64,000 nt of DNA. Origin: Saprospira grandis str. Lewin (GTDB lineage: Bacteria > Bacteroidota > Bacteroidia > Chitinophagales > Saprospiraceae). Positions 1,887-58,351 of the stretch are shown in pieces. Within the stretch, counting starts at the first letter, position 1; every line of letters begins with the position of its first letter. The notes beneath the pieces were generated by a model. The model made no database searches. It saw only the letters and a program-made list of their open reading frames with translations, and was not told where the DNA came from. The stretch is taken from positions 2,280,001 to 2,344,000 of the forward strand of contig NC_016940.1 in NCBI RefSeq assembly GCF_000250635.1, in the 5' to 3' direction. The position numbers and the translations under genes are program-made.

Positions 1887-2050
1887 TTTGGGGCCTCAGC
1901 TGCGGCTTCGCCTTGCTGCGGGCTGTGTCGCGGCTCGCAGGTCTGCTCGGCCCTGCAGTTTTTTCGCTTTGCTCAAAAACTTGGGTCTGCGGCTTCGCCG
2001 CCCCGCTTTCCATCCCTAGGCCTGCGGGCGCTTTGCGCCCTGCTACATCC
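1887..2050 (+). repeat. Intergenic structured element, copy 1 (+)
   Basis: GC-rich element that starts TTTGGGGCCTC and holds the family core (GCAGGTCTGCTCGGCCC near 1937). Hairpin 1 after the core has AT-rich arms here (AGTTTTT ... AAAAACT); hairpin 2 is TGCGGC-ttc-GCCGC. The 3' end is of the CCATCCCT type with a final GGGCGC-ttt-GCGCCC hairpin. It fills most of the gap between two + strand genes. Confidence 0.85.
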
Positions 2051-2108
2051 AAAAAGGGCCAAAAAAACCTAAAAAAAACTGTACTTTAGGCTAGCCAAAT
2101 CAATCATT

Positions 2109-2981
2109 ATGCAGTTAAGAGAACTCTTATTTAAGTACACCACCGACGCCTCTCGTTTTTTGGTTGTAGATGATATGCTCATCCATTATCGAGATGAGGG
2201 AACTGGAGAACCCTTGCTCCTTTTGCATGGGGCTTTTTCTTCTTTACATACCTATAATGAATGGACCAAATACCTCAAAAGCCATTATCGGGTGATTCGC
2301 TTAGATTTGATGGGTTTTGGTTTGACAGGGCCCAACTCTACAGGCAATTATACGATGGAAAATCATATTCGGGTGCTCAAGCAGTTTCTGGATATTTTGG
2401 GTTTAGAGCAGTTTCATTTGGTGGGCAATTCGTTGGGGGGCTGGATCAGCTGGGAGTTTGCCTATCGTTATCCCCAAAGGGTCAAAAAATTGGTCCTTAT
2501 TGATGCGGCGGGTTTTATGGAGGAAGAAAATGTGCCCTTACCCTTTAAATTGGCCCAAGCGCCCATCTTTGGTCGGGTGGTCAAGTATGTGGTTCGGAAA
2601 CCCATTTTAGAGAGTTTTTTGCGGCAGGTATACTACGATAGTGATAAAGTGACCAATGCCTTGGTAGATCGTTATTACGAGCTATTTAGTCGAGAGGGGA
2701 ACAATGACGCCTTTCTCAAGCTCGTCAATTCGCCTTATACGGACCATAGTCCATTTTTGAAATATGTGAGCAACCCCACCTTAGTGATGTGGGGGAGAGA
2801 AGACATGTGGATTCCGGTCCATAATGCCGATCGGTTTCATAAGCTACTGCCTCATTCTTGGCAAAAGATTTACCCTAGGGTAGGGCATATCCCGATGGAG
2901 GAAATTCCGGAAGAAAGCGTTTTAGACCTCTTGCATTTTTTGCAGGAAAGTGCGGAATTTTCCCATATTTCTGAGGGCTAA
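2109..2981 (+). CDS. Alpha/beta-fold hydrolase
   Basis: 290 residues, no signal peptide. The oxyanion-region HG motif (LLLLHGAFSS, about 36-45) and the nucleophile elbow GNSLGG (Ser108) are clear. A late Asp in WGREDMW (about 231) and His in VGHIPMEE (about 261) complete the triad. This is the classic layout of small esterase, epoxide-hydrolase-like or C-C hydrolase enzymes, and the substrate is unknown. It sits alone between repeat elements 1 and 2. Confidence 0.88.
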   Translation: MQLRELLFKYTTDASRFLVVDDMLIHYRDEGTGEPLLLLHGAFSSLHTYNEWTKYLKSHYRVIRLDLMGFGLTGPNSTGNYTMENHIRVLKQFLDILGLEQFHLVGNSLGGWISWEFAYRYPQRVKKLVLIDAAGFMEEENVPLPFKLAQAPIFGRVVKYVVRKPILESFLRQVYYDSDKVTNALVDRYYELFSREGNNDAFLKLVNSPYTDHSPFLKYVSNPTLVMWGREDMWIPVHNADRFHKLLPHSWQKIYPRVGHIPMEEIPEESVLDLLHFLQESAEFSHISEG

Positions 2982-3057
2982 AAAAATAAATGGAAGAAAA
3001 AAAGGGCTCCTTTTGCAAAGCTTGCAGAATATTTAATAATTTAATCTTGCCTTAGAT

Positions 3058-3214
3058 CTGCGATCTACAGGCCCGCAGGGCCGCAGGCTGAGGGATGGAA
3101 AGTGGGGCGGCGCAGCCGCAGACCCAGCAGGCAAAGCCTGCGCAGGGCCGAGCAGACTTGCGAGCCACGACAGAGCCCGACCCGAGCGAAGCGAGTGGGC
3201 AGCCCCCAAAAAAA
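3058..3214 (-). repeat. Intergenic structured element, copy 2 (-)
   Basis: Reverse-orientation copy. Read on the minus strand it starts at TTTTTTTGGGGGCTGCCC, then a GGGTCGGGCT block, the core variant GCAAGTCTGCTCGGCCC, hairpin 1 GCAGGC-ttt-GCCTGC, hairpin 2 TGCGGC-tgc-GCCGC, and the CCATCCCT-type 3' end. It lies between two + strand genes, so its orientation does not follow the flanking genes. Confidence 0.84.
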
Positions 3215-3299
3215 GTTCTTAGCCTAATGAAAAATAGTCTTTTAGCCATATAACTTATTGAAGAATTTGATCTTGAGTGAGTTCATAAAATGATAACCC

Positions 3300-4847
3300 A
3301 TGTTAGTTCCAAGCCTTATTCTTAAGCAACTGTATAACTTTAATAGCCTAGCGAATGTAGAGGGCGGTTTGCAGTTCATGATGAAAAATCGTTTGAGCGA
3401 TACGCAGATTACCCAACTCAAATCGGTGCGTATTGGAGACCATCGGCTGCAGGCGGATGAAATTACGCTTTTGCTAGAAGATGGCAGTCAGCGGGCTGCG
3501 GCTAGTTTGACCGAAGCCGCGCCCTTAGATTTGCCCCTAAAGGCCAGTTTTCAGTTACATTGTGCCATGCCCCAATTGCCTAATGGAAAATATGAGGTAG
3601 AAATTGTTTTTTCTGCTCAGCCTTTTGGCGAATTGACCTTAGTGGTAGAAGATGGGCTTTCGGATAAATCGGAGCCTACGGTTAGCATTCCTAGAGACCG
3701 GAGCGATGACTATGGCGATGCCATTATTAAGGAGCGTCAAAAGTTTGTAGAGGATTATACGGGGGCCAAAATGGAGCATGTTGGACAATACTCTTTTGAT
3801 CCGCATAGCTGTAATGGAAACTGCGAGCACTTTATTGGAGCGGCTCAGATTCCGTTGGGTGTAGCTGGGCCTTTGCAAGTAAACGGAGAATTTGCCCAGG
3901 GCGAGTTTTTGATTCCATTGGCCACCTCAGAAGGGACCCTAGTGGCCTCTTACAACCGAGGCATTAAGGTTGTTAACCTTTCTGGAGGGGTAAAATGTAC
4001 GGTCCAAAGAGATTCGATGCAAAGAGCGCCCGTTTTTGTTTTTGAGGATGCCCGTGCTGCTCGTGACTTTGTAGACTGGGTAAAGGTTAATTTTGCCAAA
4101 ATTGCCGAAGAAGCCGAAGCTACCTCAAGTGTGGCTCGTTTGCAATACATTGACCCCTATTTGGCCAATAAATTTGCCTACCTCCGCTTCAACTTCTTTA
4201 CGGGAGATGCTGCGGGGCAAAACATGGTGGGTAGAGCTACTTTTGCGGCCTGTAGTTGGATTCTAGACGCCTATAAGGACCATAAAGTAGAGCACTTTTA
4301 CTTAGAGTCGAATTTTGCGACTGATAAAAAAGCCTCTCAGGTAAACATCATGCGCACTAGAGGAAAACGAGTAACTGCCGAGGTCGTACTCAAGCGAGAT
4401 GTACTCATTCAAAATATGCGGGTAGAGCCCGAAAGTTTGGCCTACCACTATGGCGTGGCCAATATTGGCTCTATTATGTCGGGGGCCAACAACAACGGTC
4501 TACACTCAGCCAATGCCATTACGGCCATGTTCATTGCTACGGGCCAAGATGTAGCCAACGTTTCAGAATCTTCTGCGGGCTTGGTCTACTGTGAGCTCAC
4601 GCCCGAAAAAGACCTTTATTTCTCGATCACCATCCCTTCGCTGATTGTGGCCACTTTTGGAGGCGGAACAGGCCTCGCCACCCAGAACGAATGCTTGAGC
4701 ATGTTGGGTTGTGTAGGCCGCGATAAGGTCAATAAGCTAGCTGAAATCATTGCGGGAGTAGTGCTTGCTGGAGAAATTTCTTTGGCCTCGGCCATCTCCT
4801 CTTCCGATTGGGTATCTAGCCATGAACAATATGGAAGGAACCGATAG
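3300..4847 (+). CDS. hmgA: Hydroxymethylglutaryl-CoA reductase
   Basis: 515 residues. It reduces HMG-CoA to mevalonate for isoprenoid synthesis. Signature blocks: CEHFIG...PLGVAGPL, ATSEGTLVASYNRG (catalytic Glu), TGDAAGQNM (cofactor region), TDKKASQVN (Lys), TGQDVANVSESS (Asp), GGGTGLATQNECL, and a C-terminal SSHEQYGRNR with the His that is typical of class I enzymes. About 120 N-terminal residues precede the catalytic core and match nothing I recognise; there are no membrane spans. Start ATG at 3300; a later ATG at 3378 (MMKNRLSD) is a possible alternative. Confidence 0.93.
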   Translation: MLVPSLILKQLYNFNSLANVEGGLQFMMKNRLSDTQITQLKSVRIGDHRLQADEITLLLEDGSQRAAASLTEAAPLDLPLKASFQLHCAMPQLPNGKYEVEIVFSAQPFGELTLVVEDGLSDKSEPTVSIPRDRSDDYGDAIIKERQKFVEDYTGAKMEHVGQYSFDPHSCNGNCEHFIGAAQIPLGVAGPLQVNGEFAQGEFLIPLATSEGTLVASYNRGIKVVNLSGGVKCTVQRDSMQRAPVFVFEDARAARDFVDWVKVNFAKIAEEAEATSSVARLQYIDPYLANKFAYLRFNFFTGDAAGQNMVGRATFAACSWILDAYKDHKVEHFYLESNFATDKKASQVNIMRTRGKRVTAEVVLKRDVLIQNMRVEPESLAYHYGVANIGSIMSGANNNGLHSANAITAMFIATGQDVANVSESSAGLVYCELTPEKDLYFSITIPSLIVATFGGGTGLATQNECLSMLGCVGRDKVNKLAEIIAGVVLAGEISLASAISSSDWVSSHEQYGRNR

Positions 4848-7402: not shown

Positions 7403-7619
7403 TTTGGGGCCTCCGCCTCGCTGGTCGGCGGTTACTCCCGCTGGTCGTCGAACTGCGGCCTAAAGGCCTTGTTGTCGTTTCGCAGCTCGCTGCTGTTTTG
7501 GGGCCTCCGCCTCGCTTCGCTCGTCGGCGCTACGTTTCGCAGCTCGCAGGTCTGCTCGGCCCTGCGGCGGCTTTGCCGCCTTGGTCTGGCCTGCGGCCAC
7601 TGCTGCACATCGCTAGGCC
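7403..7619 (+). repeat. Intergenic structured element, copy 3 (+), tandem double
   Basis: Two GGGGCCTCCGCCTCGC heads in tandem: a partial unit (7403-7495) ending at a CGCAGCTCGCTGCTG block, and a full unit (7496-7619). The full unit has the core near 7545, hairpin 1 GGCGGC-ttt-GCCGCC, hairpin 2 TGGCC-tgc-GGCCA and the CACATCGCTAGGCC end. Copy 4 has the same double structure. Confidence 0.87.
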
Positions 7620-10231: not shown

Positions 10232-12235
10232 ATGAGAAAGTTAGATTCTAAAGTACCTCCTGGTCCCTTAGCCGAAAAATGGGTTAAGTATCGTTCAACT
10301 ATGCCGCTAGTAGCCCCCAATAACAAACGTCGCCTAGATGTTATCGTTGTTGGTACTGGCCTCGCTGGTGCCTCTGCTGCAGCAACCCTAGGAGAGTTAG
10401 GCTATAATGTTTCTTGTTTTACTTTTCATGATAGCCCCCGCCGCGCTCACTCTATCGCCGCTCAGGGTGGAATCAATGCCGCCAAAAATTACCGAAATGA
10501 TGGCGATAGCGTTTACCGCCTTTTCTATGATACCATCAAAGGGGGAGACTACCGCTCTAGAGAAGCTAATGTGCATCGCCTAGCCGAAGCCTCTACCGAT
10601 ATTATTGACCAATGTGTGGCTCAAGGGGTTCCCTTCGCCCGCGAATATGGTGGAGAACTCGCTACCCGCTCTTTCGGTGGGGTACAAGTATCTCGTACCT
10701 TCTATGCCCGTGGCCAAACTGGTCAGCAGCTTTTGTTGGGCGCCTATAGTGCCCTCTCTCGCCAAATCTCTTTGGGTAGCGTGACGATGTATAACCGCCA
10801 CGAAATGCTCGATTTGGTAGTCGTAGACGGTAAAGCTCGCGGAATTATCGCCCGTAACCTCCTCAACGGGAAAATTGAACGCTATGCCGCTCATGCCGTT
10901 GTGCTCGGTACCGGCGGATACGGTAATGTGTATTATCTCTCTACTAACGCTATGGGATGTAATGTCTCTGCCGCCTGGAGAGCCCACCGCCGTGGTGCCT
11001 ATTTTGCCAACCCTTGCTATTGCCAAATTCACCCCACCTGTATCCCCGTTTCGGGCGATTATCAGTCTAAACTAACACTGATGTCAGAATCACTCCGTAA
11101 TGACGGACGTGTATGGGTGCCCAAGGATATGGCTATGGTCGAAAAACTCCGCAAAGGAGAAGTTAAACCCGAAAATGTAGCCGAGGAAGATCGCGATTAT
11201 TACCTAGAACGCATCTATCCCGCTTTCGGTAACTTGGTGCCTCGTGATGTAGCCTCTAGAGCCGCTAAATATGTTTGTGATGAAGGACGTGGAGTTGGAC
11301 CAACTGGCCTCTCTGTTTACCTAGATTTCTCTACAAACACTATGCGCTACGGCCGCTCTGTAGCTATCTCTAAAGGCCAGCCCGATGCCTCAGATGCTAA
11401 GGTGAAAGAATGGGGTAAAGAAGTGGTTTCTGCAAAATACGGTAACCTCTTCGAAATGTATGAGAAGATTACTGGCGAAAATCCCTACGAAACACCCATG
11501 CGTATCTATCCCGCTATCCACTATACTATGGGGGGACTTTGGGTAGATTATAACCTAGAAACAACGATCCCCGGCCTCTTCGCCCTAGGCGAATGTAATT
11601 TCTCTGACCATGGCGCTAACCGCCTCGGTGCTTCTGCCCTAATGCAAGGTCTAGCCGATGGCTATTTCGTCATCCCTTACACTATCGGTACTTTCTTGGC
11701 CAACGAAATCCGTACACCCAAGATTAGCCCCGAACAAGCTGCTTTCGATCAAGCAGAAAAAGAAGTGAAGGAACGTATCGAGAAACTACTTAGCATCCAA
11801 GGAAACCGCTCTGTAGAGTCTTTCCACCGCGAACTAGGCGTAGATATTATGTGGGAGTACTGCGGTATGGCCCGTAATGCCGATGGCCTCAAAACAGCAC
11901 AGCAAAAGGTCCGCAAACTCCGCGATGAGTTCTGGAAAAATGTATTCGTCCCCGGCGCTGCCAACGAATATAATCCCGAACTCGAAAAAGCGCTCCGCGT
12001 AGCCGATTTCTTCGAACTCGCCGAGGTGATGATTATGGATGCCCTAGACCGTAAAGAGTCTTGCGGTGGCCACTTCCGCGATGAATACGCTACTCCAGAA
12101 GGAGAAGCCCAGCGTAATGATAAAGAATATGCTTATGTAGCCGCCTGGGAATTTAAAGGCCCCGGCCAAGCCGAACTCCACAAAGAAGAACTCACCTTCG
12201 AAAATGTAGAGCTCAAAACGCGTAGCTACAAGTAA
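10232..12235 (+). CDS. sdhA: Succinate dehydrogenase/fumarate reductase flavoprotein subunit
   Basis: 667 residues. It oxidises succinate to fumarate in the TCA cycle. FAD dinucleotide fold [12 protein letters not shown] (about 41-52), the [11 protein letters not shown] motif whose His carries covalent FAD, active-site blocks IHPT and [11 protein letters not shown], and [10 protein letters not shown]. The length fits the long FrdA/SdhA type of Bacteroidota. Second gene of the operon, 105 bases after sdhC. Confidence 0.96.
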
Positions 12236-12274
12236 TTCTTTTCACATCTATTGACTATTTAAACTCCATATATT

Positions 12275-13048
12275 ATGGCTCATGACGAAATTAGACTGAC
12301 GCTCAACGTCTGGAGACAAAAAAGTGCAGGCCAAGCCGGTAAGTTCGAAAGCTATCAGGTGACTGCCAATACGCATATGTCTTTCCTCGAAATGTTGGAC
12401 GTCCTCAATGAACAACTCAACTCCCAAAAGAAAGACCCCGTCGCTTTTGAACACGATTGCCGCGAGGGAATCTGCGGAGCTTGTAGCCTCGTAATCAACG
12501 GCCGCCCGCATGGCCCTATGCAAGGTACCACTACTTGCCAATTGCATATGCGCCACTTCGATGATGGCGATACGATCTGGATCGAACCCTACCGCGCTAA
12601 GGCCTTCCCCGTAGTGAAGGACCTGGTGGTAGACCGCTCTGCCTTCGATCGCATTATCCAAGCCGGAGGATACGTTTCTGTAAATACTGGGGGTACTCCC
12701 GACGGTAACGCTATTCCTATCGAGCAAGAGGTGGCCGCCAAGGGCTTTAATGCCGCCGCTTGTATTGGCTGTGGCGCCTGTGTGGCCGCCTGCCCCAATG
12801 CCTCGGCTATGCTCTTTACTTCTGCTAAAGTGACGCATTTGGCCACTATGCCGCAAGGACATGTAGAGGCCCAACAACGGGTACTCAATATGGTCAGCCA
12901 AATGGATGGCGAGGGCTTCGGTCTTTGCTCTAATATTGGCGCCTGTGAGGCCGAATGCCCCAAGGAAATCTCTATCGAGAATATCGCTCAGATGAACCGC
13001 GAGTATATTGCCGCTGTCTTTGGCTCTAACCGCCAAGCTGCTAAATAA
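12275..13048 (+). CDS. sdhB: Succinate dehydrogenase/fumarate reductase iron-sulfur subunit
   Basis: 257 residues. It carries electrons from the flavin to the membrane anchor. [2Fe-2S] ligands in CREGICGAC...C; the [4Fe-4S] and [3Fe-4S] ligands in [12 protein letters not shown] and [12 protein letters not shown]. It starts 39 bases after sdhA and closes the operon, followed by the terminator at 13077-13110. Confidence 0.96.
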
Positions 13049-13076: not shown

Positions 13077-13110
13077 GGTCAGTGCCTCCTGAGGTACTGA
13101 CCTTTTTTTT
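13077..13110 (+). terminator. Rho-independent terminator of the sdh operon
   Basis: Stem GGTCAGT-g-CCTC / GAGG-t-ACTGACC with a 2-base loop, then eight T. Repeat copy 4 begins within the T run. Confidence 0.9.
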
Positions 13111-13331
13111 GGGGCCTCCGCCTCGCTACGCTCGTCGGCGGTTACTCCCTTTGGTCGTCGAACTGCGGACTGAAGTCCTTGTTGTCGTTCCGCAGCTCGC
13201 TGCTGTTTTTGGGCCTCCGCCTCCCTTTGGTCGTCGGCGCTACGTTCCGCAGCTCGCAGGTCTGCTCGGCCCTGCGTCGCCTTCGGCTCCTTGGTCTGCG
13301 GCTGCGCCGCACTGCTGCACATCGCTAGGCC
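13105..13331 (+). repeat. Intergenic structured element, copy 4 (+), tandem double
   Basis: A partial unit (13105-13205) with the same CGTCGAACTGCGG...CGCAGCTCGCTGCTG plan as copy 3, then a full unit (13206-13331). The full unit has the core at about 13251-13277, hairpin 2 TGCGGC-tgc-GCCGCA and the CACATCGCTAGGCC end. It starts directly at the sdh terminator T run. Confidence 0.87.
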
Positions 13332-13347
13332 GCTCAGCTGTCTTTTT

Positions 13348-13848
13348 TCAGCCTAAGTTTCTTCTTCGGCCTTTGATCTCTGTCAAATAGGGCGTAAAGG
13401 TTTTGATGGGGTATTTGATCTCTGTCAAATAGGGCGTAAAGGTTTTGATGGGGTATTTGATCTCTGTCAAATAGGGCAAAAAGGTTTTGATGGGGTATTT
13501 GATCTCTGTCAAATAGGGCGTAAAGGTTTTGATGGGGTATTTGATCTCTGTCAAATAGGGCGTAAAGGTTTTGATATGCCGTTCTGCATCTGCAGAATAG
13601 GGTGTAAAGGTTTTGATATGCTGTTCTGCATCTGCAGAATAGGGTGTAAAGGTTTTGATGTGCTGTTCTGCATCTGCAGAATAGGGCGTAAAGGTTTTGA
13701 TATGCTGTTCTGCATCTGCAGAATAGGGCGTAAAGGTTTTGATGTGCCGTTCTGCATCTGCAGAATAGGGTGTAAAGGTTTTGATGTGCCGTTCTGCATC
13801 TGCAGAATAGGGCATAAAGGTTTTGATAGGTTGTTCTGCCGCAGCCAA
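13348..13848 (-). CDS. Possible repeat protein across the 42-bp array (uncertain)
   Basis: An open frame of up to 166 residues with 14-residue repeats. It starts at TTG (13848); no ATG or GTG lies between the preceding in-frame stop and the repeats, and I see no convincing ribosome-binding site or signal. In favour of coding: two of the three recurrent differences between type-2 units (ACA/ACG and CAT/CAC) are silent in this frame but change residues in the open + strand frame. Against: no start, no homologue I know, and location in a gene-poor island. It may be a relic or no gene at all. Confidence 0.25.
   Translation of the reverse strand: MAAAEQPIKTFMPYSADAERHIKTFTPYSADAERHIKTFTPYSADAEQHIKTFTPYSADAEQHIKTFTPYSADAEQHIKTFTPYSADAERHIKTFTPYLTEIKYPIKTFTPYLTEIKYPIKTFLPYLTEIKYPIKTFTPYLTEIKYPIKTFTPYLTEIKGRRRNLG
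13372..13833. repeat. Eleven tandem 42-bp repeats in two alternating-arm types
   Basis: Units start at 13372 and every 42 bases after it. The first five (13372-13581) carry the block TTTGATCTCTGTCAAA; the next six (13582-13833) carry TTCTGCATCTGCAGAA instead. Both blocks are inverted repeats (TTTGA/TCAAA and TTCTGCA/TGCAGAA). The other 26 bases (TAGGGCGTAAAGGTTTTGAT plus 6) are nearly constant. As 42 is a multiple of three, both strands stay open: minus strand unit IKTFTPYSADAEQH or IKTFTPYLTEIKYP. A 12th partial unit starts at 13834. Coding or structural function unresolved. Confidence 0.92.
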
Positions 13849-13875
13849 TCTTGCTGGGCCATCATCTTGCTCGCC

Positions 13876-14020
13876 GCAGGAGCTTAAAAGCCCCTGCTTC
13901 TTGGATAGAAGGCAGGGACTTAGATTTTTCAGGTCCTGCGGCTTTTAAGCTGCAGGCCAAGAGGACTGCCAAAATCTAGCTTAGTTGTTCCGAAATTGGC
14001 TGCGGCTTTTAAGCTGCAGC
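13876..14020. repeat. Three related palindromes with a GCTT-AAGC centre
   Basis: 13876-13897 (GCAGG-a-GCTT-aa-AAGC-c-CCTGC), 13935-13956 (CCTGC-g-GCTT-tt-AAGC-t-GCAGG) and 13999-14020 (GCTGC-g-GCTT-tt-AAGC-t-GCAGC). The inner stem is constant and the outer arms change while remaining complementary. The middle one is further enclosed by an AGATTTT / AAAATCT pair (about 13922 and 13971). No gene is visible here. Confidence 0.75.
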
Positions 14021-14040: not shown

Positions 14041-14157
14041 GGCCTAGCGATGTGCAGCAGTGGCCGTCAGGCCAGACCGAGCCGCTGAAAGCGGCGAAGG
14101 GCCGAGCGAAGAGCGAGCTGCGCAACGTAGCGCCCGCCGAAGGCGGGAGGCCCCCAA
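14041..14157 (-). repeat. Intergenic structured element, copy 5 (-)
   Basis: On the minus strand: GGGGGCCTCCCGCC-ttc-GGCGGG head, CGCTACGTT, the core variant GCTCGCTCTTCGCTCGGCC, hairpin 1 GCCGCT-ttc-AGCGGC, hairpin 2 TGGCC-tgac-GGCCA, end CACATCGCTAGGCC. It faces copy 4 across the 42-bp array. Confidence 0.85.
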
Positions 14158-16773: not shown

Positions 16774-16996
16774 TTTTGGGGCTGCCCCTTGCTTCGCTCG
16801 GGTCGGGCTATGTATTCCCGTTGGTCATCGAACTGGCGCCCCTTTGGGGCTGGTTGTCGCAGCTCGCTGTTACTTGCTTCGCTGCGTCGGCTCCCGTTGG
16901 TCGGGTCGCTCGGCCCTGCAGCCCTGCGGGCTTTGGTCTGGCCTTCGGCCACTGCTTTCTATCCCTCAGCCTGCGGCGGCTCCGCCGCCTGTCCAC
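16774..16996 (+). repeat. Intergenic structured element, copy 6 (+), long form
   Basis: GGGGCTGCCC head, GGGTCGGGCT block, a GGCGCC-cctttgg-GGC region, then a divergent core GGGTCGCTCGGCCCTGC. Hairpin 1 is AGCCC-tgc-GGGCT, hairpin 2 TGGCC-ttc-GGCCA. CTATCCCTCAGCCTGCGG end with GGCGGC-tcc-GCCGCC. It lies upstream of the minus-strand trpS and downstream of another minus-strand gene. Confidence 0.8.
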
Positions 16997-20378: not shown

Positions 20379-20538
20379 GCCTTGGCCCTAGCTGGGCGGC
20401 CGCAGGCCGCTTTTGTATGGCCTAGCGATGCGAAAGGGTGGCCGTTAGGCCAGACCGAAGCCCGAAGGGCTGAAGGGCCGAGCGAATAGCGAGCCCTGTA
20501 GCGTAGCGCCGCAGCTTTGCTGCGGAGGCCCCAAAAAA
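20379..20538 (-). repeat. Intergenic structured element, copy 7 (-)
   Basis: On the minus strand: GGGGCCTCCGCAGC-aaa-GCTGCGG head, CGCTACGCTACAGG, the core variant GCTCGCTATTCGCTCGGCC, hairpin 1 AGCCC-ttc-GGGCT, hairpin 2 TGGCC-taac-GGCCA, and a slightly altered end CGCATCGCTAGGCC. An extra palindromic GGCGGCCGCAGGCCGC stretch follows. Confidence 0.83.
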
Positions 20539-23542: not shown

Positions 23543-23680
23543 TTTTTTTGGGGCTGTCCCGCCCTACGGGCGGGTCGCTACGTTTCGGGGCTCGCAGGTC
23601 TGCTCGGCCCTGCAGCCGCCAAAGGCGGCTTTGGTCTGGCCTAACGGCCACCCCTGCACATCGCTCATCCGCTCATCGCT
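23543..23680 (+). repeat. Intergenic structured element, copy 8 (+)
   Basis: TTTTTTTGGGGCTGT head with CCCGCC-ctac-GGGCGGG, CGCTACGTTTCGGG, the core near 23593-23616, hairpin 1 AGCCGCC-aaa-GGCGGCT, hairpin 2 TGGCC-taac-GGCCA, then CACATCGCTCATCC. It mixes a B-type head with an A-type tail. Confidence 0.86.
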
Positions 23681-25990: not shown

Positions 25991-26133
25991 TGGCCCAGCG
26001 CTGCGCAGCCGTGGCCGAAGGCCAGACCCAAGGCGAAACGAAGTGGAGCCTGCAGGGCCGAGCAGACCTGCGAGCGGCGTAGCATAGCGGCGGCCGCCTT
26101 GGCTTTGCCAAGGCGGCCGCGGGCCCCAAAAAA
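25991..26133 (-). repeat. Intergenic structured element, copy 9 (-)
   Basis: C-type copy. On the minus strand: GGGGCCCGC, a long head hairpin GGCCGCCTTGGC-aaa-GCCAAGGCGGCC, GCCGCTATGCTACGCCGCTC, core, hairpin 1 AGGC...GCCT (loose), hairpin 2 TGGCC-ttc-GGCCA, end GCGCAGCGCTGGGCC. Its head hairpin is nearly identical to that of copy 12. Confidence 0.85.
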
Positions 26134-29366: not shown

Positions 29367-29489
29367 TTTGGGGCCTCCGCTGCGCTGCGCTTGCGGCGCT
29401 ATGTTGCGGGGCTCGCAGGTCTGCTCGGCCCTGCGGCGGCTGCGCCGCCTGGGTCTGGCCTGACGGCCACCCCTCCACAGCGCTAGGCC
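29367..29489 (+). repeat. Intergenic structured element, copy 10 (+)
   Basis: TTTGGGGCCTCCGCTGCGCTGCGC head, CGCTATGTTGCGGG, the core at about 29410-29433, hairpin 1 GGCGGC-tgc-GCCGCC, hairpin 2 TGGCC-tgac-GGCCA, end CACAGCGCTAGGCC. It begins 2 bases after the kdsD stop codon. Confidence 0.86.
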
Positions 29490-31119: not shown

Positions 31120-31244
31120 GGCCTAGCGATGTGCAGCAGTGCGGCGCAGCCGCAGACCAAGGCCGTCAGGCCGCAGGGCCGAGCAGACCTGCGAGCTGCG
31201 AAACGTAGCGCCGACGACCGAAGGGAGGCGGAGGCCCCAAAAAA
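31120..31244 (-). repeat. Intergenic structured element, copy 11 (-)
   Basis: A-type. On the minus strand: GGGGCCTCCGCCTCCC, CGTCGGCGCTACGTTTCGCAG, core, hairpin 1 GGCC-tgac-GGCC, hairpin 2 TGCGGC-tgc-GCCGCA, end CACATCGCTAGGCC. Nearly the same as copy 20 apart from the hairpin arms. Confidence 0.87.
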
Positions 31245-31307: not shown

Positions 31308-31343
31308 AAAAAGGGCTGTCGGAATTCTCCAACAGCCCTTTTT
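31308..31343 (-). terminator. Rho-independent terminator of pdxA
   Basis: AAAAAGGGCTGT-c-GGA / TCC-a-ACAGCCCTTTTT, one C-A mismatch, AATTC-type loop, and T run on the minus strand. Confidence 0.9.
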
Positions 31344-31345
31344 GC

Positions 31346-32899
31346 TTAGTCCTTATTCAGTTCCTCTTGCTTCTGCACATTTTTAGGAGCTTCGGCTTTG
31401 GGTTCCTGTTTTTTGGGTTCCTGCTTCTGCACATTTTTAGGAGCTTCGGCCTTAGGTTCCTGTTTTTTGGGTTCCTGCTTCTGCTCATTTTTAGGAGCTT
31501 CGGCCTTAGGTTCCTGTTTTTTGGGTTCCTGTTTCTGCACATTTTTAGGAGCTTCGGCTTTGGGTTCCTGTTTTTTGGGTTCCTGCTTCTGCTCATTTTT
31601 AGGAGCTTCGGCTTTGGGTTCCTGTTTTTGGGGTTCCTGCTTCTGCTCATTTTTAGGAGCTTCGGCCTCTTTATTTTCTACAGTATCTGTAGGACGGGGA
31701 CCCTTGCGTTTTGGTCCACGAGGGGGGCGCTTACTGCTGCGCTTGCCTTTTCCTTTGGGGTCCTCCTCATTCGTCTCCTCTTGTTTAGGAGCATCTTTTC
31801 GTTCTTGTTGGCGTTGCTTGCGGTATTTCCGTCTTTCCTGTTCCTCTTCCTTTTCGTATTGTTCTAGGCTAATACTAGGCATTTCATTAGCGTGCATATC
31901 CTCATAATTGGCCCTATTTCTATGGGCATCGATAGCCAGATAGAGCGCACGGCGGAAAGAGTCGGCATCGGCTACATTTTTTCCGGCCAAATTGAAGGCG
32001 GTCCCATGGTCTGGAGAAGTGCGGACAAAGGGCATTCCTGCGGTAAAATTGACCCCTTGACCAAAAGAGAGGGCCTTAAAAGCCACCAGTCCTTGGTCGT
32101 GGTACATGGCCAAAATGGCGTCAAAATTTTTATAATTTTGGCTACCAAAGAATCCATCGGCAGGGTAGGGGCCAATAGCCATAATGCCTTCTTTTTTGGC
32201 TTTTTCGATAGCGGGGAGAATCACTTCTTGCTCTTCGGTCCCAATATTTCCACCATCGCTAGCGTGGGGATTAAGGCCCAGAACGGCAATTTTTGGGCGG
32301 TCCAGCCCAAAGTCGGCCCGCAAACTATGGTGCATCAGTTGTAGCTTGCGCAAAACGGTTTGGCTATTGATGGCATCGGCCACTTGGCGAATAGGGAGAT
32401 GATTGGTCACTAGGCCTACACGGAGGTTTTCATGCACCAGCATCATTAGATTTTCTTTGCTACCCAATTGCTCGGCCAGATACTCGGTATGTCCCGTATG
32501 CGGAAAGTTGGCTAGCTGCATAGCCTCCTTATTGATTGGGGCTGTGACTAGGGCATCTACATAGCCATCTTTTAGGGCCTGTACGGCTTTTTCGAGGGCG
32601 ATATAAGCATATTTGCCAGCTTCTTCAGAGATATTGCCCAAATTGATACGAACATTATCGCTCCAACAATTGACCACATTGATTTGTCCTTCTTCTGGCT
32701 GTTCTCCTTCTTCTATGGTATGAAACTGAAAACTGCGCAGCTTGACAATATTCTTATGGTAGGCCAAGATCTTGGCCGAACCAAAAATAACGGGCGTACA
32801 AAGTTCGGTAATGCGGCTATCGCCTAATGTCTTGAGGAGAACTTCTGGACCAATACCGTTAATGTCTCCAATAGAAATTCCTATTTTAATCTTTTCCAT
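31346..32899 (-). CDS. pdxA: 4-hydroxythreonine-4-phosphate dehydrogenase with long repetitive C-terminal tail
   Basis: 517 residues. Residues 1-344 are a full PdxA (GDINGIGPEV, HTGHTEYLA, LNPHASDGG with metal-binding His, YHDQGLVAFK, TSPDHGTAFN), an oxidoreductase of pyridoxal phosphate synthesis. About 173 extra residues follow: a basic/acidic stretch rich in Lys, Arg and Glu, then about five and a half copies of an 18-residue Gln/Lys/Glu/Pro/Ala repeat. The normal enzyme is 330-360 residues. The tail is in frame with no stop, so it is a real fusion on this sequence. Gap of 32 bases to the phosphatase gene upstream. Confidence 0.93.
   Translation of the reverse strand: MEKIKIGISIGDINGIGPEVLLKTLGDSRITELCTPVIFGSAKILAYHKNIVKLRSFQFHTIEEGEQPEEGQINVVNCWSDNVRINLGNISEEAGKYAYIALEKAVQALKDGYVDALVTAPINKEAMQLANFPHTGHTEYLAEQLGSKENLMMLVHENLRVGLVTNHLPIRQVADAINSQTVLRKLQLMHHSLRADFGLDRPKIAVLGLNPHASDGGNIGTEEQEVILPAIEKAKKEGIMAIGPYPADGFFGSQNYKNFDAILAMYHDQGLVAFKALSFGQGVNFTAGMPFVRTSPDHGTAFNLAGKNVADADSFRRALYLAIDAHRNRANYEDMHANEMPSISLEQYEKEEEQERRKYRKQRQQERKDAPKQEETNEEDPKGKGKRSSKRPPRGPKRKGPRPTDTVENKEAEAPKNEQKQEPQKQEPKAEAPKNEQKQEPKKQEPKAEAPKNVQKQEPKKQEPKAEAPKNEQKQEPKKQEPKAEAPKNVQKQEPKKQEPKAEAPKNVQKQEELNKD
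31361..31670 (-). repeat. 54-bp tandem repeats encoding the PdxA tail
   Basis: The motif GAGCTTCGG recurs at 31387, 31441, 31495, 31549, 31603 and 31657, exactly 54 bases apart. Units differ by few bases, giving Asn-Glu or Asn-Val at one place and Gln or Lys at another. High identity suggests recent expansion; the long open frame on the opposite strand is a by-product. Confidence 0.93.
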
Positions 32900-35468: not shown

Positions 35469-35605
35469 TTTGGGGCCCGCGGCCGCCTTGGCAAAGCCAA
35501 GGCGGCCGCCGCTATGCTGCGCCGCTCGCAGGTCTGCTCGGCCCTGCAGCCGCCTTTGGCGGCTTGGGTCTGGCCCTGCGGGCCACGGCTGCGCAGCGCT
35601 GGGCC
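35469..35605 (+). repeat. Intergenic structured element, copy 12 (+)
   Basis: C-type: GGGGCCCGC head with GGCCGCCTTGGC-aaa-GCCAAGGCGGCC, GCCGCTATGCTGCGCCGCTC, core, hairpin 1 AGCCGCC-ttt-GGCGGCT, hairpin 2 TGGCCC-tgc-GGGCCA, end GCGCAGCGCTGGGCC. It starts 3 bases after the DCC gene's stop codon and faces copy 13. Confidence 0.87.
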
Positions 35606-35789: not shown

Positions 35790-35908
35790 GGCCTAGCGAT
35801 GTGCAGCAGTGGCCCGTAGGGCCAGACCGAGCCAGCTTGCTGGCGAAGGGCCGAGCGAATAGCGAGCTGCGAAACGTAGCGCCCGCCGCAGGCGGGAGGC
35901 CCCAAAAA
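35790..35908 (-). repeat. Intergenic structured element, copy 13 (-)
   Basis: A-type. On the minus strand: GGGGCCTCCCGCC-tgc-GGCGGG, CGCTACGTTTCGCA, the core variant GCTCGCTATTCGCTCGGCC, hairpin 1 GCCAGC-aa-GCTGGC, hairpin 2 TGGCCC-tac-GGGCCA, end CACATCGCTAGGCC. Confidence 0.86.
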
Positions 35909-41790: not shown

Positions 41791-43503
41791 ATGGCCATTT
41801 TGTTAGCGTATAAGGGCTTGACAATAGACTTTAAACAGGGCGATATGCCCGCTGTTCGAGCCGTGGACCAGCTGAGCTTTCAGTTGCGCTCTGGAGAGTT
41901 GTTGGGCATTGTCGGAGAATCAGGCTCTGGCAAATCAGTGAGCTGTTTGGCCGCACTACGACTGTTGGCCAGGCCAGCAGCACAGTATGTAGCCGGACAA
42001 ATTATTTATCGAAAAGGAGAGGAGGAGCTAGATCTTTTGCAACTGAAAGATGCCGAAATGCGGAAGATTCGAGGCCAGGAAATCGCCATGATTTTTCAGG
42101 AGCCCATGAGTTCTTTAAATCCCGTTCTTTCTTGTGGCGAACAATTGATAGAAGCGATCCCCAAAGAAGAAAAAAAGGAAGCCAAGGCCGCCAAAGCTCG
42201 AGCCTTGGCCCTATTGGAAAAAGTACGTTTGGATGATAGTGAACGCATTTTTTCAGCTTATCCACATCAATTATCTGGCGGCCAAAAACAACGCCTAATG
42301 ATAGCTATGGCTTTGGCCGGCCGCCCCAAGATCCTAATTGCCGATGAACCCACAACAGCCCTAGATGTCTCGGTCCAAAAGTCTATCTTGGCCCTGATTA
42401 AGCAGTTGCAAAAGGAGCTAGATATGGCCGTAATATTTGTTACGCATGATTTGGCCGTTCTAGCCGAAATTGCCGACCGAGTTCTGGTGATGTATCAGGC
42501 TAAACGAATGGAAGAAGGACCTATCTCAGAGATTTATGAATCTCCCAAATCACCTTATACAAGAAGCCTACTGGCCTGCCACCCGCCCCTAGATAGTTGG
42601 CTCAGCCGCTTGCCTACTGTGGCCGATTTTATGGGAGAACCCCCCAAATATAGCTCGGCCAAAGCCGCCCGAAAAGCACTCGCTAAACCAGCCCCTACTT
42701 ATGAAGTACCTAAGGTTCAGCCGCTTTTGGAGGTGGAAAACCTAAGGACCTATTTCCCTAAGCAACGAACTTTCTTTGGCCGTACCAAAAGCTACCTTAA
42801 AGCCGTTGATGGAGTGTCCTTTGCTTTGTATCCCGGCGAGGTCTTGGGCTTGGTCGGGGAGTCGGGCTCTGGAAAAACTACCCTGGGCCGCAGTTTGCTG
42901 CGCCTACAAGATTGCCAAGCCGATAAGCTTTGCTTTGATGGGCAAGATCTCCGAACACTCTCGCCTAAAAAGTTGCGTCAGCTGCGCCCACAAATGCAAA
43001 TCATTTTTCAAGATCCCCTAGCCGCACTCAATCCCAGACAAAAAATTGGAGCCGCCATTGAAGAACCCATGCGTATGCACGGCATTTTGTCCTCTAAACG
43101 AGAACGCCGAAAACGCGTGGAGGAACTGCTGGAACAAGTCGGACTTTCTGCCGATCAATATAACCGATACCCCCATGAGTTTTCTGGTGGACAGCGCCAA
43201 CGAATCTGTATCGCTCGGGCTTTGGCCCTGCAACCCCGCCTGATTGTTTGCGATGAGTCGGTGTCTGCCCTAGATGTCTCGGTGCAGGCACAGGTCCTCA
43301 ATTTATTGCTGGACCTAAAAGAACAGTACCAATTGAGCTATATCTTTATCTCTCATGACCTCTCTGTGGTCAAGTTTATGGCCGACCGCCTGCTCGTTAT
43401 GCAAAACGGAAAAATTGTAGAATCAGGCAGTAGTCGACAAATTTATGAAAACCCCCAAGAAGCTTATACCCAAGAACTCATTGCTGCCATCCCCAAAGGT
43501 TAG
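41791..43503 (+). CDS. Oligopeptide-type ABC transporter, two ATPase domains fused
   Basis: 570 residues with two full nucleotide-binding domains. Walker A GESGSGKS at about 42-49 and GESGSGKT at about 355; signatures LSGGQKQR and FSGGQRQR; Walker B LIADEPT and VCDESVSALD. It corresponds to DppD plus DppF fused, as in YejF and GsiA. It would energise peptide or nickel uptake, but no permease or binding protein gene is adjacent, so the partners lie elsewhere. A gene of unknown function follows 14 bases later. Confidence 0.95.
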   Translation: MAILLAYKGLTIDFKQGDMPAVRAVDQLSFQLRSGELLGIVGESGSGKSVSCLAALRLLARPAAQYVAGQIIYRKGEEELDLLQLKDAEMRKIRGQEIAMIFQEPMSSLNPVLSCGEQLIEAIPKEEKKEAKAAKARALALLEKVRLDDSERIFSAYPHQLSGGQKQRLMIAMALAGRPKILIADEPTTALDVSVQKSILALIKQLQKELDMAVIFVTHDLAVLAEIADRVLVMYQAKRMEEGPISEIYESPKSPYTRSLLACHPPLDSWLSRLPTVADFMGEPPKYSSAKAARKALAKPAPTYEVPKVQPLLEVENLRTYFPKQRTFFGRTKSYLKAVDGVSFALYPGEVLGLVGESGSGKTTLGRSLLRLQDCQADKLCFDGQDLRTLSPKKLRQLRPQMQIIFQDPLAALNPRQKIGAAIEEPMRMHGILSSKRERRKRVEELLEQVGLSADQYNRYPHEFSGGQRQRICIARALALQPRLIVCDESVSALDVSVQAQVLNLLLDLKEQYQLSYIFISHDLSVVKFMADRLLVMQNGKIVESGSSRQIYENPQEAYTQELIAAIPKG

Positions 43504-44710: not shown

Positions 44711-44846
44711 TTTTGGGGCCCGCGGCCGGCTAGGCTTCGCCTAGCTCGGCCGCCGCTATGCTGCGGGGCTCGCAAGCCTGCTCGGCCCTGCGCGGGCTTC
44801 GCCCGCTGGGTCTGGCCTGCGGCCACCCACTCCGCAGCGCTGGGCC
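44711..44846 (+). repeat. Intergenic structured element, copy 14 (+)
   Basis: C-type: GGGGCCCGC head, hairpin GGCCGGCTAGGC-ttc-GCCTAGCTCGGCC, GCCGCTATGCTGCGGG, the core variant GCAAGCCTGCTCGGCCC, hairpin 1 GCGGGC-ttc-GCCCGC, hairpin 2 TGGCC-tgc-GGCCA, end CCGCAGCGCTGGGCC. Confidence 0.87.
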
Positions 44847-47426: not shown

Positions 47427-47626
47427 TTTTTTGGGGCTGCCCCGCCTTTTAGGCGGGTCGGGCTGGATACTCCCGTTGGTCGTCGAACTGGCGCCCCTTT
47501 AGGGGCTGGTTGTCGCAGCTCGCAGGTCTGCTCGGCCCTGCAGCGGCTGCGCCGCTTTGGTCTGCCGCCTTCGGCGGCCCTGCTGTCCATCCCTCAGCCT
47601 GCGGCGGCTTTGCCGCCTGTAGGACC
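47427..47626 (+). repeat. Intergenic structured element, copy 15 (+)
   Basis: B-type: TTTTTTGGGGCTGC, CCCGCC-tttta-GGCGGG, TCGGGCTGGATACTCCC, a GGCGCC...GGGGC loop region like copy 6, core, hairpin 1 AGCGGC-tgc-GCCGCT, hairpin 2 TGCCGCC-ttc-GGCGGC, CCATCCCTCAGCC with GGCGGC-ttt-GCCGCC. It starts 2 bases after the methyltransferase stop. Confidence 0.86.
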
Positions 47627-48360: not shown

Positions 48361-48534
48361 GGGGCGGCGAAGCCGCCACGGCCGTTAGGCCGAACGGACT
48401 AGCGATCTGTAGCAGGGCCGCCGCAGGCGGCAGACCTAGGCGCCAAAGGCGCCGCAGGGCCGAGCAGACCTGCGAGCTGCGAAAGGTAGCGCCCGCAGCC
48501 CCAAAAAAAAGGGCTGCGGGAGGCCCCAAAAAAG
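48361..48534 (-). repeat. Intergenic structured element, copy 16 (-)
   Basis: On the minus strand: GGGGCCTCCCGCAGCCC with an A/T-run loop and a second GGGGCTGCGGG, CGCTACCTTTCGCAG, core, hairpin 1 GGCGCC-ttt-GGCGCC, hairpin 2 TGCCGCC-tgc-GGCGG, then an altered end ACAGATCGCTAGTCC and an extra GGCCTAACGGCC. It starts 4 bases after the glmS stop. Confidence 0.84.
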
Positions 48535-51835: not shown

Positions 51836-51982
51836 TTTTAGGGGCTTTCCCTCCCTGCGGTCGGGCCGGGCTGTGTCGCAGCTCGCTCTTCGCTCGGCCC
51901 TTCGGCGCAAAGCGCCTCGGTCTGGCCCTGCGGGCCACTGCTATCCATCCCTAAGCCTGCGGCGGCTTCGCCGCCTGTAGGC
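51836..51982 (+). repeat. Intergenic structured element, copy 17 (+)
   Basis: B-type: GGGGCTTTCCCTCCCTGCGG, TCGGGCCGGGCTGTGTCGCA, the core variant GCTCGCTCTTCGCTCGGCC, hairpin 1 GGCGC-aaa-GCGCC, hairpin 2 TGGCCC-tgc-GGGCCA, CTATCCATCCCTAAGCC with GGCGGC-ttc-GCCGCC. Remaining DNA in the 51689-52115 gap has no gene. Confidence 0.85.
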
Positions 51983-54624: not shown

Positions 54625-54636
54625 AATTAATCGATT

Positions 54637-55056: not shown

Positions 55057-55195
55057 TTTGGGGCCTGCGGCCAAGCCAGGCATTGCCTGGCTTGGCCGCC
55101 GCTATGCTGCGCCGCTCGCAAGTCTGCTCGGCCCTGCAGCCGCCGAAGGCGGCTTTGGTCTGGCCCTTCGGGCCACGGCTGCGCAGCGCTAGGCC
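55057..55195 (+). repeat. Intergenic structured element, copy 18 (+)
   Basis: C-type: GGGGCCTGC, head hairpin GGCCAAGCCAGGC-att-GCCTGGCTTGGCC, GCCGCTATGCTGCGCCGCTC, the core variant GCAAGTCTGCTCGGCCC, hairpin 1 AGCCGCC-gaa-GGCGGCT, hairpin 2 TGGCCC-ttc-GGGCCA, end GCGCAGCGCTAGGCC. Faces copy 19. Confidence 0.87.
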
Positions 55196-55278: not shown

Positions 55279-55446
55279 ACAGGCGGCGAAGCCGCCGCAG
55301 GCTTAGGGATGGATAGGGGGGCGGCGAAGCCGCAGACCCAAGTTTTTTGAGCAAAGCGAAAAAAACTGCAGGGCCGAGCGAATAGCGAGCCCCGACACAG
55401 CCCGACCCGAAGGCCCAAAGGGCCGAAGGGGAAGCCCCAAAAAAAT
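55279..55446 (-). repeat. Intergenic structured element, copy 19 (-)
   Basis: B-type. On the minus strand: GGGGCTTCCCCTTCGGCC, GGGTCGGGCTGTGTCGGGG, the core variant GCTCGCTATTCGCTCGGCC, AT-rich hairpin 1 (AGTTTTTT ... AAAAAACT) as in copy 1, hairpin 2 TGCGGC-ttc-GCCGC, CTATCCATCCCTAAGCC with GGCGGC-ttc-GCCGCC. Ends 14 bases before asnB. Confidence 0.86.
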
Positions 55447-55460
55447 AGCCCCTTATATAT

Positions 55461-57368: not shown

Positions 57369-57380
57369 ATTATTATTACA

Positions 57381-58184
57381 ATGATTGATTATCATAAAAT
57401 TGGCGAGCGCTTGCTCTTGATTGCAGGCCCTTGCGTGATCGAATCTAAAGAATTATTGCAGGAAGTGGCCCAAGAGTTGGTTCGCTTGCAAGAGAAATAT
57501 CCCGTACAAATTGTCTTTAAGGCTTCCTTCGATAAGGCCAACCGCAGCTCAATCGGCTCTTTTCGGGGCCCTGGTCTAGAAAAAGGCTTGCAAATGCTGG
57601 CCGAAATCAAAGAAGAGTTTGGCTTGCCCATTTTGAGCGATATTCATTTGCCTAGCCAGGCGGCTCCCGCTGCTGAGGTGCTCGACATTTTGCAGATTCC
57701 CGCTTTTCTTTGCCGCCAAACCGATTTGTTGGTGGCCGCCGCCAAAACCAATAAAATTGTCAATGTCAAAAAGGCCCAATTTCTTTCTGGCCCCGATATG
57801 AAACATGTGCTCGGCAAACTAGAGGCGGCTGGCAACAAACAGTTGTTGCTAACGGAGCGAGGAACCTCTTTTGGCTACAATAATTTGGTGGTCGATTATA
57901 CGGGCATTTTAGAAATGCAAGAGTTGGGCTATCCTGTGGTCATGGATGCCACCCATTCGGTCCAAAAACCCGGCGCAGCCAATGGCAAAAGCGGCGGAAA
58001 TGGCGCTTATGCCCCCTATATGGCCAAGGCGGCTGCCGCTATTGGGGTTGGCGCTTTTTTCATCGAAACCCATCCCAATCCTAGCCAAGCCCTCTCTGAT
58101 GGGCCCAATATGGTCCCGCTGGCCGAGCTAGAAACCCTTTTGCAGCAACTTTTGGCTTTGCATCAGTTGGTACAGACGTTCTAA
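57381..58184 (+). CDS. kdsA: 3-deoxy-8-phosphooctulonate synthase
   Basis: 267 residues, normal length. It condenses arabinose 5-phosphate with phosphoenolpyruvate to Kdo-8-phosphate for lipopolysaccharide. AGPCVIES near the start, FKASFDKANRSS, DIHLPSQA, LTERGTSFGYNNLVVD, and the metal-site ETHPNPSQALSDGPNM. Works after the KdsD-like isomerase at 28420. Confidence 0.97.
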   Translation: MIDYHKIGERLLLIAGPCVIESKELLQEVAQELVRLQEKYPVQIVFKASFDKANRSSIGSFRGPGLEKGLQMLAEIKEEFGLPILSDIHLPSQAAPAAEVLDILQIPAFLCRQTDLLVAAAKTNKIVNVKKAQFLSGPDMKHVLGKLEAAGNKQLLLTERGTSFGYNNLVVDYTGILEMQELGYPVVMDATHSVQKPGAANGKSGGNGAYAPYMAKAAAAIGVGAFFIETHPNPSQALSDGPNMVPLAELETLLQQLLALHQLVQTF

Positions 58185-58203
58185 TATATATAATGGGGTA
58201 GGA

Positions 58204-58228
58204 GAGGGGCAAATGCTCCTCTTTTTTA
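58204..58228 (+). terminator. Rho-independent terminator after kdsA
   Basis: GAGGGGC / GCTCCTC (one G-T pair) with the loop AAAT, then six T. Repeat copy 20 follows at once. Confidence 0.85.
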
Positions 58229-58229
58229 C

Positions 58230-58351
58230 TTTGGGGCCTCCGCCTCGCTACGCTCGTCGGCGCTACGTTTCGCAGCTCGCAGGTCTGCTCGGCCCTGCGG
58301 CCTGACGGCCTTGGTCTGCCGCTGCGCGGCACTGCTGCACATCGCTAGGCC
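58230..58351 (+). repeat. Intergenic structured element, copy 20 (+)
   Basis: A-type: TTGGGGCCTCCGCCTCGC, CGTCGGCGCTACGTTTCGCAG, core, hairpin 1 GGCC-tgac-GGCC, hairpin 2 TGCCGC-tgc-GCGGCA, end CACATCGCTAGGCC. A good reference copy. Confidence 0.88.

What the first reader, a model, noticed from the sequence alone, without database searches (positions are those of the whole stretch)
1937..58320. Hairpins in the elements keep pairing while their arms change (covariation)
At the same place just after the core, the copies have different arms that still pair: GGCGGC/GCCGCC (copies 3, 10), AGCCGCC/GGCGGCT (8, 12, 18), GCGGGC/GCCCGC (14), GCCAGC/GCTGGC (13), AGCCC/GGGCT (6, 7), GGCGC/GCGCC (17), GGCGCC self-pair (16), GCAGGC/GCCTGC (2), GGCC/GGCC (11, 20), and even AT-rich AGTTTTT/AAAAACT (1, 19). 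The second hairpin likewise switches between TGGCC/GGCCA, TGGCCC/GGGCCA, TGCGGC/GCCGCA and TGCCGC/GCGGCA. Loops are usually 3-4 bases (ttt, ttc, tgc, aaa, tgac). Such compensatory change is the classic mark of a selected RNA or single-stranded DNA structure. Arm swapping by gene conversion between copies is an alternative.
Basis: partly seen in the sequence, partly recalled or inferred. Interest (0 to 1): 0.88.

Follow-up and report, generated by a model that had tools for sequence, protein, structure and literature searches.

The report
Alternating structured repeats across Saprospira genomes
A marine predatory bacterium carries an estimated 1,400 copies of a roughly 125-base folded element between its genes; the fold is kept while its stems are swapped, and in the stretches sampled neighbouring copies nearly always point in opposite directions, for which I know no explanation.

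Summary
The 20 copies are 117-197 nt multibranched elements. Besides the two local hairpins, long-range stems covary: P1 (GGCCT/AGGCC, GGCCC/GGGCC, GGCTG/CAGCC, GGCTT/AAGCC) and P3 (GCAG/CTGC, GGGG/CCCC, GCCG/CGGC and others). Covariation exceeds shuffled, slid and tree-based nulls; in the cross-genus tree test 17 column pairs are significant, all on the structure. The genome is a Saprospira (96-98% protein identity to S. grandis DSM 2844). Sampling 0.60 Mb gives one element per 3 kb, extrapolating to about 1,450 copies. The family occurs in 31 of 150 Saprospiraceae genomes and matches no Rfam family. Unreported: elements alternate in orientation (20 same-orientation neighbours of 194), by parity and not by distance, on chromosome and plasmid, more weakly in other genera (8 of 35). 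Orientation is independent of gene direction in tandem gaps. Best reading: a REPIN/BIME-like family acting mainly at DNA level as inverted pairs. RNA function is not excluded; mechanism and strand are unproven.

The parts
1887..2022 (+). element copy 1 (P1 GGCCT/AGGCC; AT-rich first hairpin)
3086..3209 (-). element copy 2 (P1 GGCTG/CAGCC; P3 GTGG/CCAC)
7403..7468 (+). partial/variant copy directly upstream of copy 3 (weak match, E 0.39)
7497..7619 (+). element copy 3, used as the exemplar
7502..7506 (+). exemplar: 5' arm of closing stem P1 (GGCCT)
   Evidence: structure; covariation
7539..7542 (+). exemplar: 5' arm of long-range stem P3 (GCAG)
7542..7563 (+). exemplar: conserved core GCTCGC-AGGTCTG-CTCGGCCCT
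7566..7580 (+). exemplar: first hairpin H1 (GGCGGC-TTT-GCCGCC)
7588..7598 (+). exemplar: second hairpin H2 (GGCC-TGC-GGCC)
7600..7603 (+). exemplar: 3' arm of P3 (CTGC)
7615..7619 (+). exemplar: 3' arm of P1 (AGGCC)
13108..13156 (+). partial/variant copy upstream of copy 4 (weak match, E 0.05)
13207..13331 (+). element copy 4
14041..14157 (-). element copy 5
16775..16971 (+). element copy 6, with an extra inserted domain (R1 match covers only 16843-16971, E 1e-5); P1 GGCTG/CAGCC
20419..20535 (-). element copy 7 (P3 AGGG/CCCT)
23547..23670 (+). element copy 8 (P1 has one mismatch)
25992..26130 (-). element copy 9 (P1 GGCCC/GGGCC; P3 GCCG/CGGC)
29367..29489 (+). element copy 10
31120..31241 (-). 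element copy 11
35469..35605 (+). element copy 12
35790..35906 (-). element copy 13 (3'-facing partner of copy 12, 184 bp apart)
44712..44846 (+). element copy 14
47430..47599 (+). element copy 15, with extra inserted domain
48396..48530 (-). element copy 16
51838..51957 (+). element copy 17 (P1 GGCTT/AAGCC)
55057..55195 (+). element copy 18
55300..55441 (-). element copy 19 (3'-facing partner of copy 18, 104 bp apart)
58230..58351 (+). element copy 20

Best explanation
These are copies of one old family of interspersed, structured intergenic elements. Shown: (1) a conserved multibranched fold, with closing stem P1, a variable 5' hairpin, long-range stem P3, a conserved core and two hairpins, kept while the bases change; (2) about one copy per 3 kb on the chromosome stretches and plasmid sampled; (3) positions mostly shared between three Saprospira genomes while inner modules are replaced as blocks, respecting the pairing; (4) orientation that alternates from copy to copy by parity, with close copies facing 3' end to 3' end. 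Inferred: the fold forms in single-stranded DNA (or extruded duplex) and the unit that matters is an inverted pair of elements, as in REPINs and BIMEs; the pair spread, or is kept, because it acts on DNA (nucleoid or protein binding, strand exchange, or past mobility). The many similar copies exchange modules by short gene conversion, possibly started by cleavage of hairpins, while copies whose fold is broken are selected against. Which protein acts on it, and what the host gains, is not known.
For: Fold and covariation. Density: 198 elements in 0.60 Mb of G000. Positions: all 82 flank-mapped comparisons leave at least 77 bp at the site; a wider two-way mapping flagged 23 of 233 as short, of which 18 still hold an element core. 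Module replacement; arm coupling. Alternation: same-orientation neighbours 7/44, 8/49, 10/54, 4/64 and 8/64 in independent stretches, 1/22 on the plasmid, 8 of 35 in other genera. Parity, not distance: at 4-6 kb adjacent copies agree in 5/32, second neighbours in 68/77. Gene direction does not set orientation in tandem gaps: 52 same, 49 opposite. Wobble is rare: 16 GT cells of 3,907 in 130 G000 elements, leaving out one pair that is GT in all of them (no control family was measured). Neighbours are no more alike than random.
Against: No nuclease, transposase or binding protein was linked to the elements: Y1 transposases do not track with them. Three loci lack an element present in a relative; two of these concern a single element, not a pair, and one of them (G002 stretch 42314) stands beside a same-orientation neighbour, so the pair is not always the unit. 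The almost invariant G-T pair, and GT somewhat more often than AC elsewhere (36:21 across genera, 16:8 in G000), fit an RNA or ssDNA of the listed strand, while loop signatures and slightly lower folding energy point to the opposite strand. In convergent gene gaps elements are co-oriented with the nearer gene, 29 to 8, which an mRNA role would also predict. Inner and outer segments do not differ significantly in length change. Alternation outside S. grandis is weaker (27 to 8).
Confidence: 0.46

Rival explanations
1. Selected structured RNA. The elements are functional RNA domains in untranslated and intercistronic regions (mRNA stability, processing or termination) or a repeated small RNA, and covariation reflects selection on the transcript.
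For: Long-range covariation across genera; one copy in another genus lies between tRNA genes on their strand; an almost invariant G-T pair and GT above AC; co-orientation with the nearer gene in convergent gaps, 29 to 8. On the complementary strand the shorter core form reads GAATA, GAACA, GAAGA (42 of 123 parsed cores are TATTCG, TGTTCG, TCTTCG or TGCTCG), which resemble GNR(N)A loops (recalled); the commonest core, AGGTCTG (52 of 123), does not.
Against: Orientation relative to tandem genes is 52:49; neighbours alternate regardless of gene direction; wobble pairs are rare; no Rfam family matches.
Confidence: 0.28
2. Structure without selection. Hairpins are kept perfect by mutation alone, through quasipalindrome template switching and gene conversion between copies, and the elements are inert repeats.
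For: Very fast wholesale replacement of the first hairpin at orthologous sites and reuse of the same modules at many loci.
Against: P1 and P3 arms lie far apart with variable modules between them, yet 5'-arm changes of P3 come with 3'-arm changes (11 of 12, 12 of 15) while core-only changes never alter the 3' arm (0 of 9, 0 of 11); the same fold with different arms persists across genera.
Confidence: 0.13
3. Mobile gene cassettes. Each inverted pair is the pair of ends of a transposon-like unit whose cargo is gained and lost.
For: One locus: G001 has a photolyase-related gene between the pair, G002 has 118 bp, G000 has the two elements fused and the gene gone; inner segments of at least 500 bp covered less than half in the relative's stretch: 1/14, 2/14, 3/16, 4/16, 3/15, 3/15, against outer 0/18, 0/18, 0/20, 1/20, 3/22, 3/22; two inner segments are unrelated between genomes up to the element borders.
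Against: The plasmid pur genes bracketed by the elements keep the same order in G003, whose pur spacers show no element by eye, so these genes are not cargo; inner and outer segments change length at similar rates (p 0.60 and 0.65); part of the gaps lies beyond the stretch fetched from the relative.
Confidence: 0.1

Closest known systems
REP, REPIN and BIME elements (abstracts of PMC2817692 and PMC3116915 seen)
   Same: Hundreds or more extragenic palindromic copies per genome; inverted doublets as a unit (REPIN); alternating orientation within BIMEs; probable DNA-level role.
   Different: About 125 nt multibranched fold with long-range stems, not a 20-40 nt palindrome; alternation runs for hundreds of kilobases across genes, not within one cluster; no linked RAYT found; modules are swapped.
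ERIC / RU-1 (127 bp) and similar enterobacterial intergenic elements (ERIC recalled; RU-1 from the search listing)
   Same: Length, intergenic location, folding potential.
   Different: Copy number, branched architecture and alternation (ERIC side recalled); no sequence comparison with ERIC was made beyond Rfam.
Double-hairpin elements of fungal mitochondrial DNA (recalled; the five rows listed were unrelated)
   Same: Dispersed hairpin elements with compensatory differences between copies.
   Different: Size, host, long-range stems, alternation.

Membership tests
REP / REPIN (RAYT-associated) | 20-40 nt palindrome with a GTAG or CGTC tag at one end | tested here: not met
   Window elements are 117-197 nt with ends TTTGGGG...RGGCC as the common form; by eye, GTAG occurs on the complementary strand only in copies reading GCTACG and is not conserved. 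The tag definition is from the listing (PMC3733652).
REP / REPIN (RAYT-associated) | A cognate rayt (Y1 transposase) gene flanked by inverted copies, whose presence correlates with the repeats | tested here: not met
   PF01797: 1 hit in G000, about 4.2 and 2.1 kb from the nearest listed elements; none in G017, which has at least 87 matches; 2 and 3 hits in G003 and G004, where no element was found. PF01797 is wider than RAYTs.
REP / REPIN (RAYT-associated) | Inverted doublets over-represented | tested here: met
   All 29 gaps under 600 bp in the G000 stretches are 3'-facing inverted pairs.
BIME | Copies in alternating orientation | tested here: met
   20 of 194 same-orientation neighbours in G000, but at kilobase spacing across genes, unlike a BIME cluster.
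A known Rfam RNA family | Score at or above a family's gathering threshold | tested here: not met
   Window and 14 relatives: only tRNAs; permissive scan of one copy: nothing near threshold.
Intrinsic terminator | Hairpin followed by a T run on the same strand | tested here: inconclusive
   By eye in the flanks printed, T runs often lie upstream of the element 5' end and seldom right after its 3' end; not scored by a terminator program.
Functional transcribed RNA | Expression with defined ends | not testable with these tools
   No transcript data available.

The most novel reading that the evidence does not exclude
The bacterial chromosome is ruled by a parity code: about 1,400 single-stranded-DNA-folding elements alternate almost strictly, so that nearly every gene or small gene group sits between two inverted structured brackets. 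The pairing of brackets is actively read (for looping, strand-specific protein loading or bracket-to-bracket exchange), not a relic, since it holds on the plasmid and, more loosely, in other genera.
Probability: 0.25. Interest if true: 0.96.

Novelty: new variant of a known kind. Interest (0 to 1): 0.86.

Why it matters
If the covariation and the alternation are right, a cultured predatory bacterium devotes roughly 4% of its genome (extrapolated) to an element that I found under no name. That gives a natural laboratory with over a thousand replicates in which to ask whether structure is selected in RNA or in DNA. Orientation parity over hundreds of kilobases, independent of gene direction in tandem gaps, is not explained by the models I know for dispersed repeats and is testable by inverting single copies.

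Tried and rejected
Purging of direct repeats as the cause of alternation: rejected, because direct repeats 4-6 kb apart are abundant as second neighbours (68 of 77) while adjacent copies at that distance rarely agree (5 of 32). Panhandle or local conversion between neighbours: rejected, neighbours share modules no more than random pairs. mRNA 3'-UTR element: weakened by 52:49 orientation in tandem gaps, though convergent gaps give 29:8. Folding energy as a strand test: inconclusive (the listed strand is lower in 71 and higher in 101 of 173; z scores on a sample of 40, mean -1.1 against -1.9). Inner segments as specially variable: not significant by length, suggestive only by coverage. Literature: the rows listed showed no description of these repeats; held 330, 376 and 54,670 papers, of which 10, 8 and 5 rows were seen. 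The Lewin genome paper (PMC3368406) is not held. PMC10508125 was searched for terms only (no 'repeat' or 'palindrom'). Of PMC2817692 and PMC3116915 I saw abstract and outline.

Limits: the gene finder was home-made; the tree-based covariation test is mine, not R-scape, and uses alignments fitted to the model, with weak matches up to E 0.5 in A8; genome-wide counts are extrapolated; searches over many genomes score few candidates per genome (24, 9; G047 matched but not), so absences are weak, and G003 is 63% complete; the three-genome comparisons share branches and are not independent.
Full report
What is there. The window is G000:C1:2280001-2344000 of a 4.40 Mb genome with a 4,345,237-base chromosome and a 54,948-base plasmid. 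The closest named genome found is Saprospira grandis DSM 2844 (96% identity for one protein); G001, whose main contig has the same length as that record, is 98% identical for two others. The strain name Lewin for G000 is my recollection. The 20 copies parse into one plan: TTTGGGG start; closing stem P1; a variable 5' hairpin P2; a short stem P1b; stem P3; the core GCTCGC-(AGGTCTG or TATTCG type)-CTCGGCCCT; hairpin H1; GGTCTG; hairpin H2; the 3' arms of P3, P1b and P1.

Is the covariation real? RNAalifold on a plain MAFFT alignment of 16 window copies found 32 pairs, 19 with changes on both sides, including P1 and P3. With sequence anchors only, P3 is fully paired in 115 of 123 elements (best of 2000 shuffles 56) and P1 in 115 of 120 (best shuffle 77); 27 and 30 of the 150 elements were dropped because anchors did not match. 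In the model-fitted alignment A5 (79 distinct rows) 96.3% of cells pair against 74.6% shuffled and at most 49.6% when slid. In A7, 15 sequences from 14 genomes, it is 94.7% against 69.3%, with 26 of 32 pairs changed on both sides somewhere. A home-made tree-based null with 60 simulated alignments gave 17 significant column pairs in the cross-genus alignment A8 (59 sequences), all 17 being consensus pairs (of 32), with 8 of 11 long-range pairs among them; within G000 (130 sequences) 14 of 32 consensus pairs and 6 of 12 long-range ones, and 23 significant pairs in all, 20 of them on or next to the structure.

Extent. A covariance model finds at least 150 copies in G000 (a cap; the weakest has E 5e-17). 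Counts are 45 in 144 kb (from the best 150 of 158 matches in 464 kb of three genomes), 130 in two other 200-kb stretches and 23 on the plasmid: 198 in 0.60 Mb, or about 1,450 per genome if uniform. A second model finds the family in 31 of 150 Saprospiraceae genomes (26 of 112 genera) at E 0.001. Across the phylum 3 of 395 genomes match at E 1e-4: G000 itself, one more Saprospiraceae and one weak case in another family (nine candidates scored per genome). Two genomes of the same genus, G003 (63% complete) and G004, gave no match. Rfam has no match. None of 150 elements lies in a gene predicted by my own finder, and all 22 on 50 kb of the annotated S. grandis WH plasmid lie between annotated genes.

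How it changes. The elements mostly sit at the same places in three genomes. In 82 flank-mapped comparisons at least 77 bp remain at the site. A wider two-way mapping flagged 23 of 233 comparisons as short. On recheck 18 still hold an element core and 5 rows, three loci, do not: G000 97529 (absent in G002), G002 42314 (absent in G000) and the G002 pair 135874/136115 (fused in G000). Inside the elements modules differ: H1 in 27 of 39 and 33 of 36 comparisons, H2 in 25 of 37 and 24 of 32, the core in 21 of 39 and 27 of 36, while aligned flanks are about 75-100% identical. In 8 of 31 and 9 of 30 parsed pairs P3, core, H1 and H2 all changed; in others only the core, H1 or H2 did. The version in the relative is seen at another locus of its roughly 50 sampled copies for the core in 17 of 21 and 23 of 27, for H2 in 16 of 25 and 16 of 24, for H1 in 3 of 27 and 11 of 33. 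It does not remove selection. When the 5' arm of P3 changes the 3' arm changes too (11 of 12; 12 of 15), but when only the core changes the 3' arm never does (0 of 9; 0 of 11), Fisher p 3e-5 and 5e-5. Against a perfect rule: four comparisons show a one-arm change, and in two (one per relative) both arms differ but the stem is broken in one of the two genomes.

Alternation. Neighbouring elements point in opposite directions: same orientation in 7 of 44, 8 of 49 and 10 of 54 neighbours in three genomes, 4 of 64 and 8 of 64 in independent stretches, 1 of 22 on the plasmid; on the related WH plasmid all 21 neighbour pairs alternate (my count). Shuffled expectation is about half. In other genera 27 alternate and 8 do not (p 9e-4; 12 of 25 stretches hold two or more). 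Every one of 29 gaps below 600 bp in G000 is a 3'-facing pair. It is parity and not distance: at 4-6 kb adjacent copies agree in 5 of 32, second neighbours in 68 of 77. Gene direction does not set orientation in tandem gaps (52:49), although in convergent gaps elements go with the nearer gene (29:8) and divergent gaps are avoided (12 of 150 elements; 41 of 209 gaps of 100 bp or more). The pur genes, bracketed on the WH plasmid, keep the same order in G003, whose pur spacers show no element by eye. So those genes are not cargo; the elements either entered an existing operon or were lost from it in G003.

Mechanism. Orientation independent of tandem genes, parity, rare wobble and inverted doublets favour a DNA-level role like REPINs and BIMEs. 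But no RAYT is linked, size and fold differ, and two of the three presence/absence loci concern a single element. Strand clues conflict: an almost invariant G-T pair supports the listed strand. H2 triloops are TNC in 114 of 126 (H1: 46 of 100), that is GNA on the other strand, and the folding energy leans to that strand. That GNA loops are unusually stable in DNA is recalled; the paper search was seen as a listing only. At one locus the segment between a pair differs: a photolyase-related gene in G001, 118 bp in G002, and a fusion of the two elements in G000. I therefore hold the DNA-level paired-element reading at 0.46 and selected RNA at 0.28.

Noticed in passing
G001 stretch coordinates 11046-12678 (C2 about 1,525,046-1,526,678); G000 C1 about 2,414,139-2,414,253: A photolyase-related (DPRP) gene sits between an inverted element pair in G001, is absent from the site in G002, and in G000 the two elements are fused with the gene gone.
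   Followed up: partly
G002 stretch coordinates 42314-42444 (C1 about 2,231,314-2,231,444): A single element present in G002 is absent at the corresponding place in G000 (about 100 bp shorter); in G002 it stands next to a same-orientation neighbour, so it may be a recent single gain.
   Followed up: partly
window 7403-7496, 13108-13206, 16775-16880, 47430-47520: A second recurrent module (TTACTCCCGTTGGTCGTCGAACTG-hairpin-TTGTTGTCG, with variants) occurs inside or next to some elements; G002 has another insert (GTTGAA..AAAGCGGTATCGCTTTGCGAAGC..) in the 5' hairpin of three copies.
   Followed up: no
L144 185-294 (G117): A copy of the element lies inside a tRNA gene array, on the tRNA strand.
   Followed up: no
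window 13295-13882: Tandem array of 42-bp repeats between two elements, with no match in the G002 stretch searched.
   Followed up: no
window 31311-31722: 54-bp tandem repeats overlapping the end of a minus-strand ORF (31346-32899).
   Followed up: no
L202 (G003 pur operon): G003 has other short repeats (TATCAAGTATCAAG-like) in the same intergenic spaces.
   Followed up: no
G002 C1 2199135-2201135 against window 10232-12235: A segment is inverted in G002 relative to G000; one border falls at the end of the element at 13207-13331, suggesting recombination between inverted copies.
   Followed up: partly
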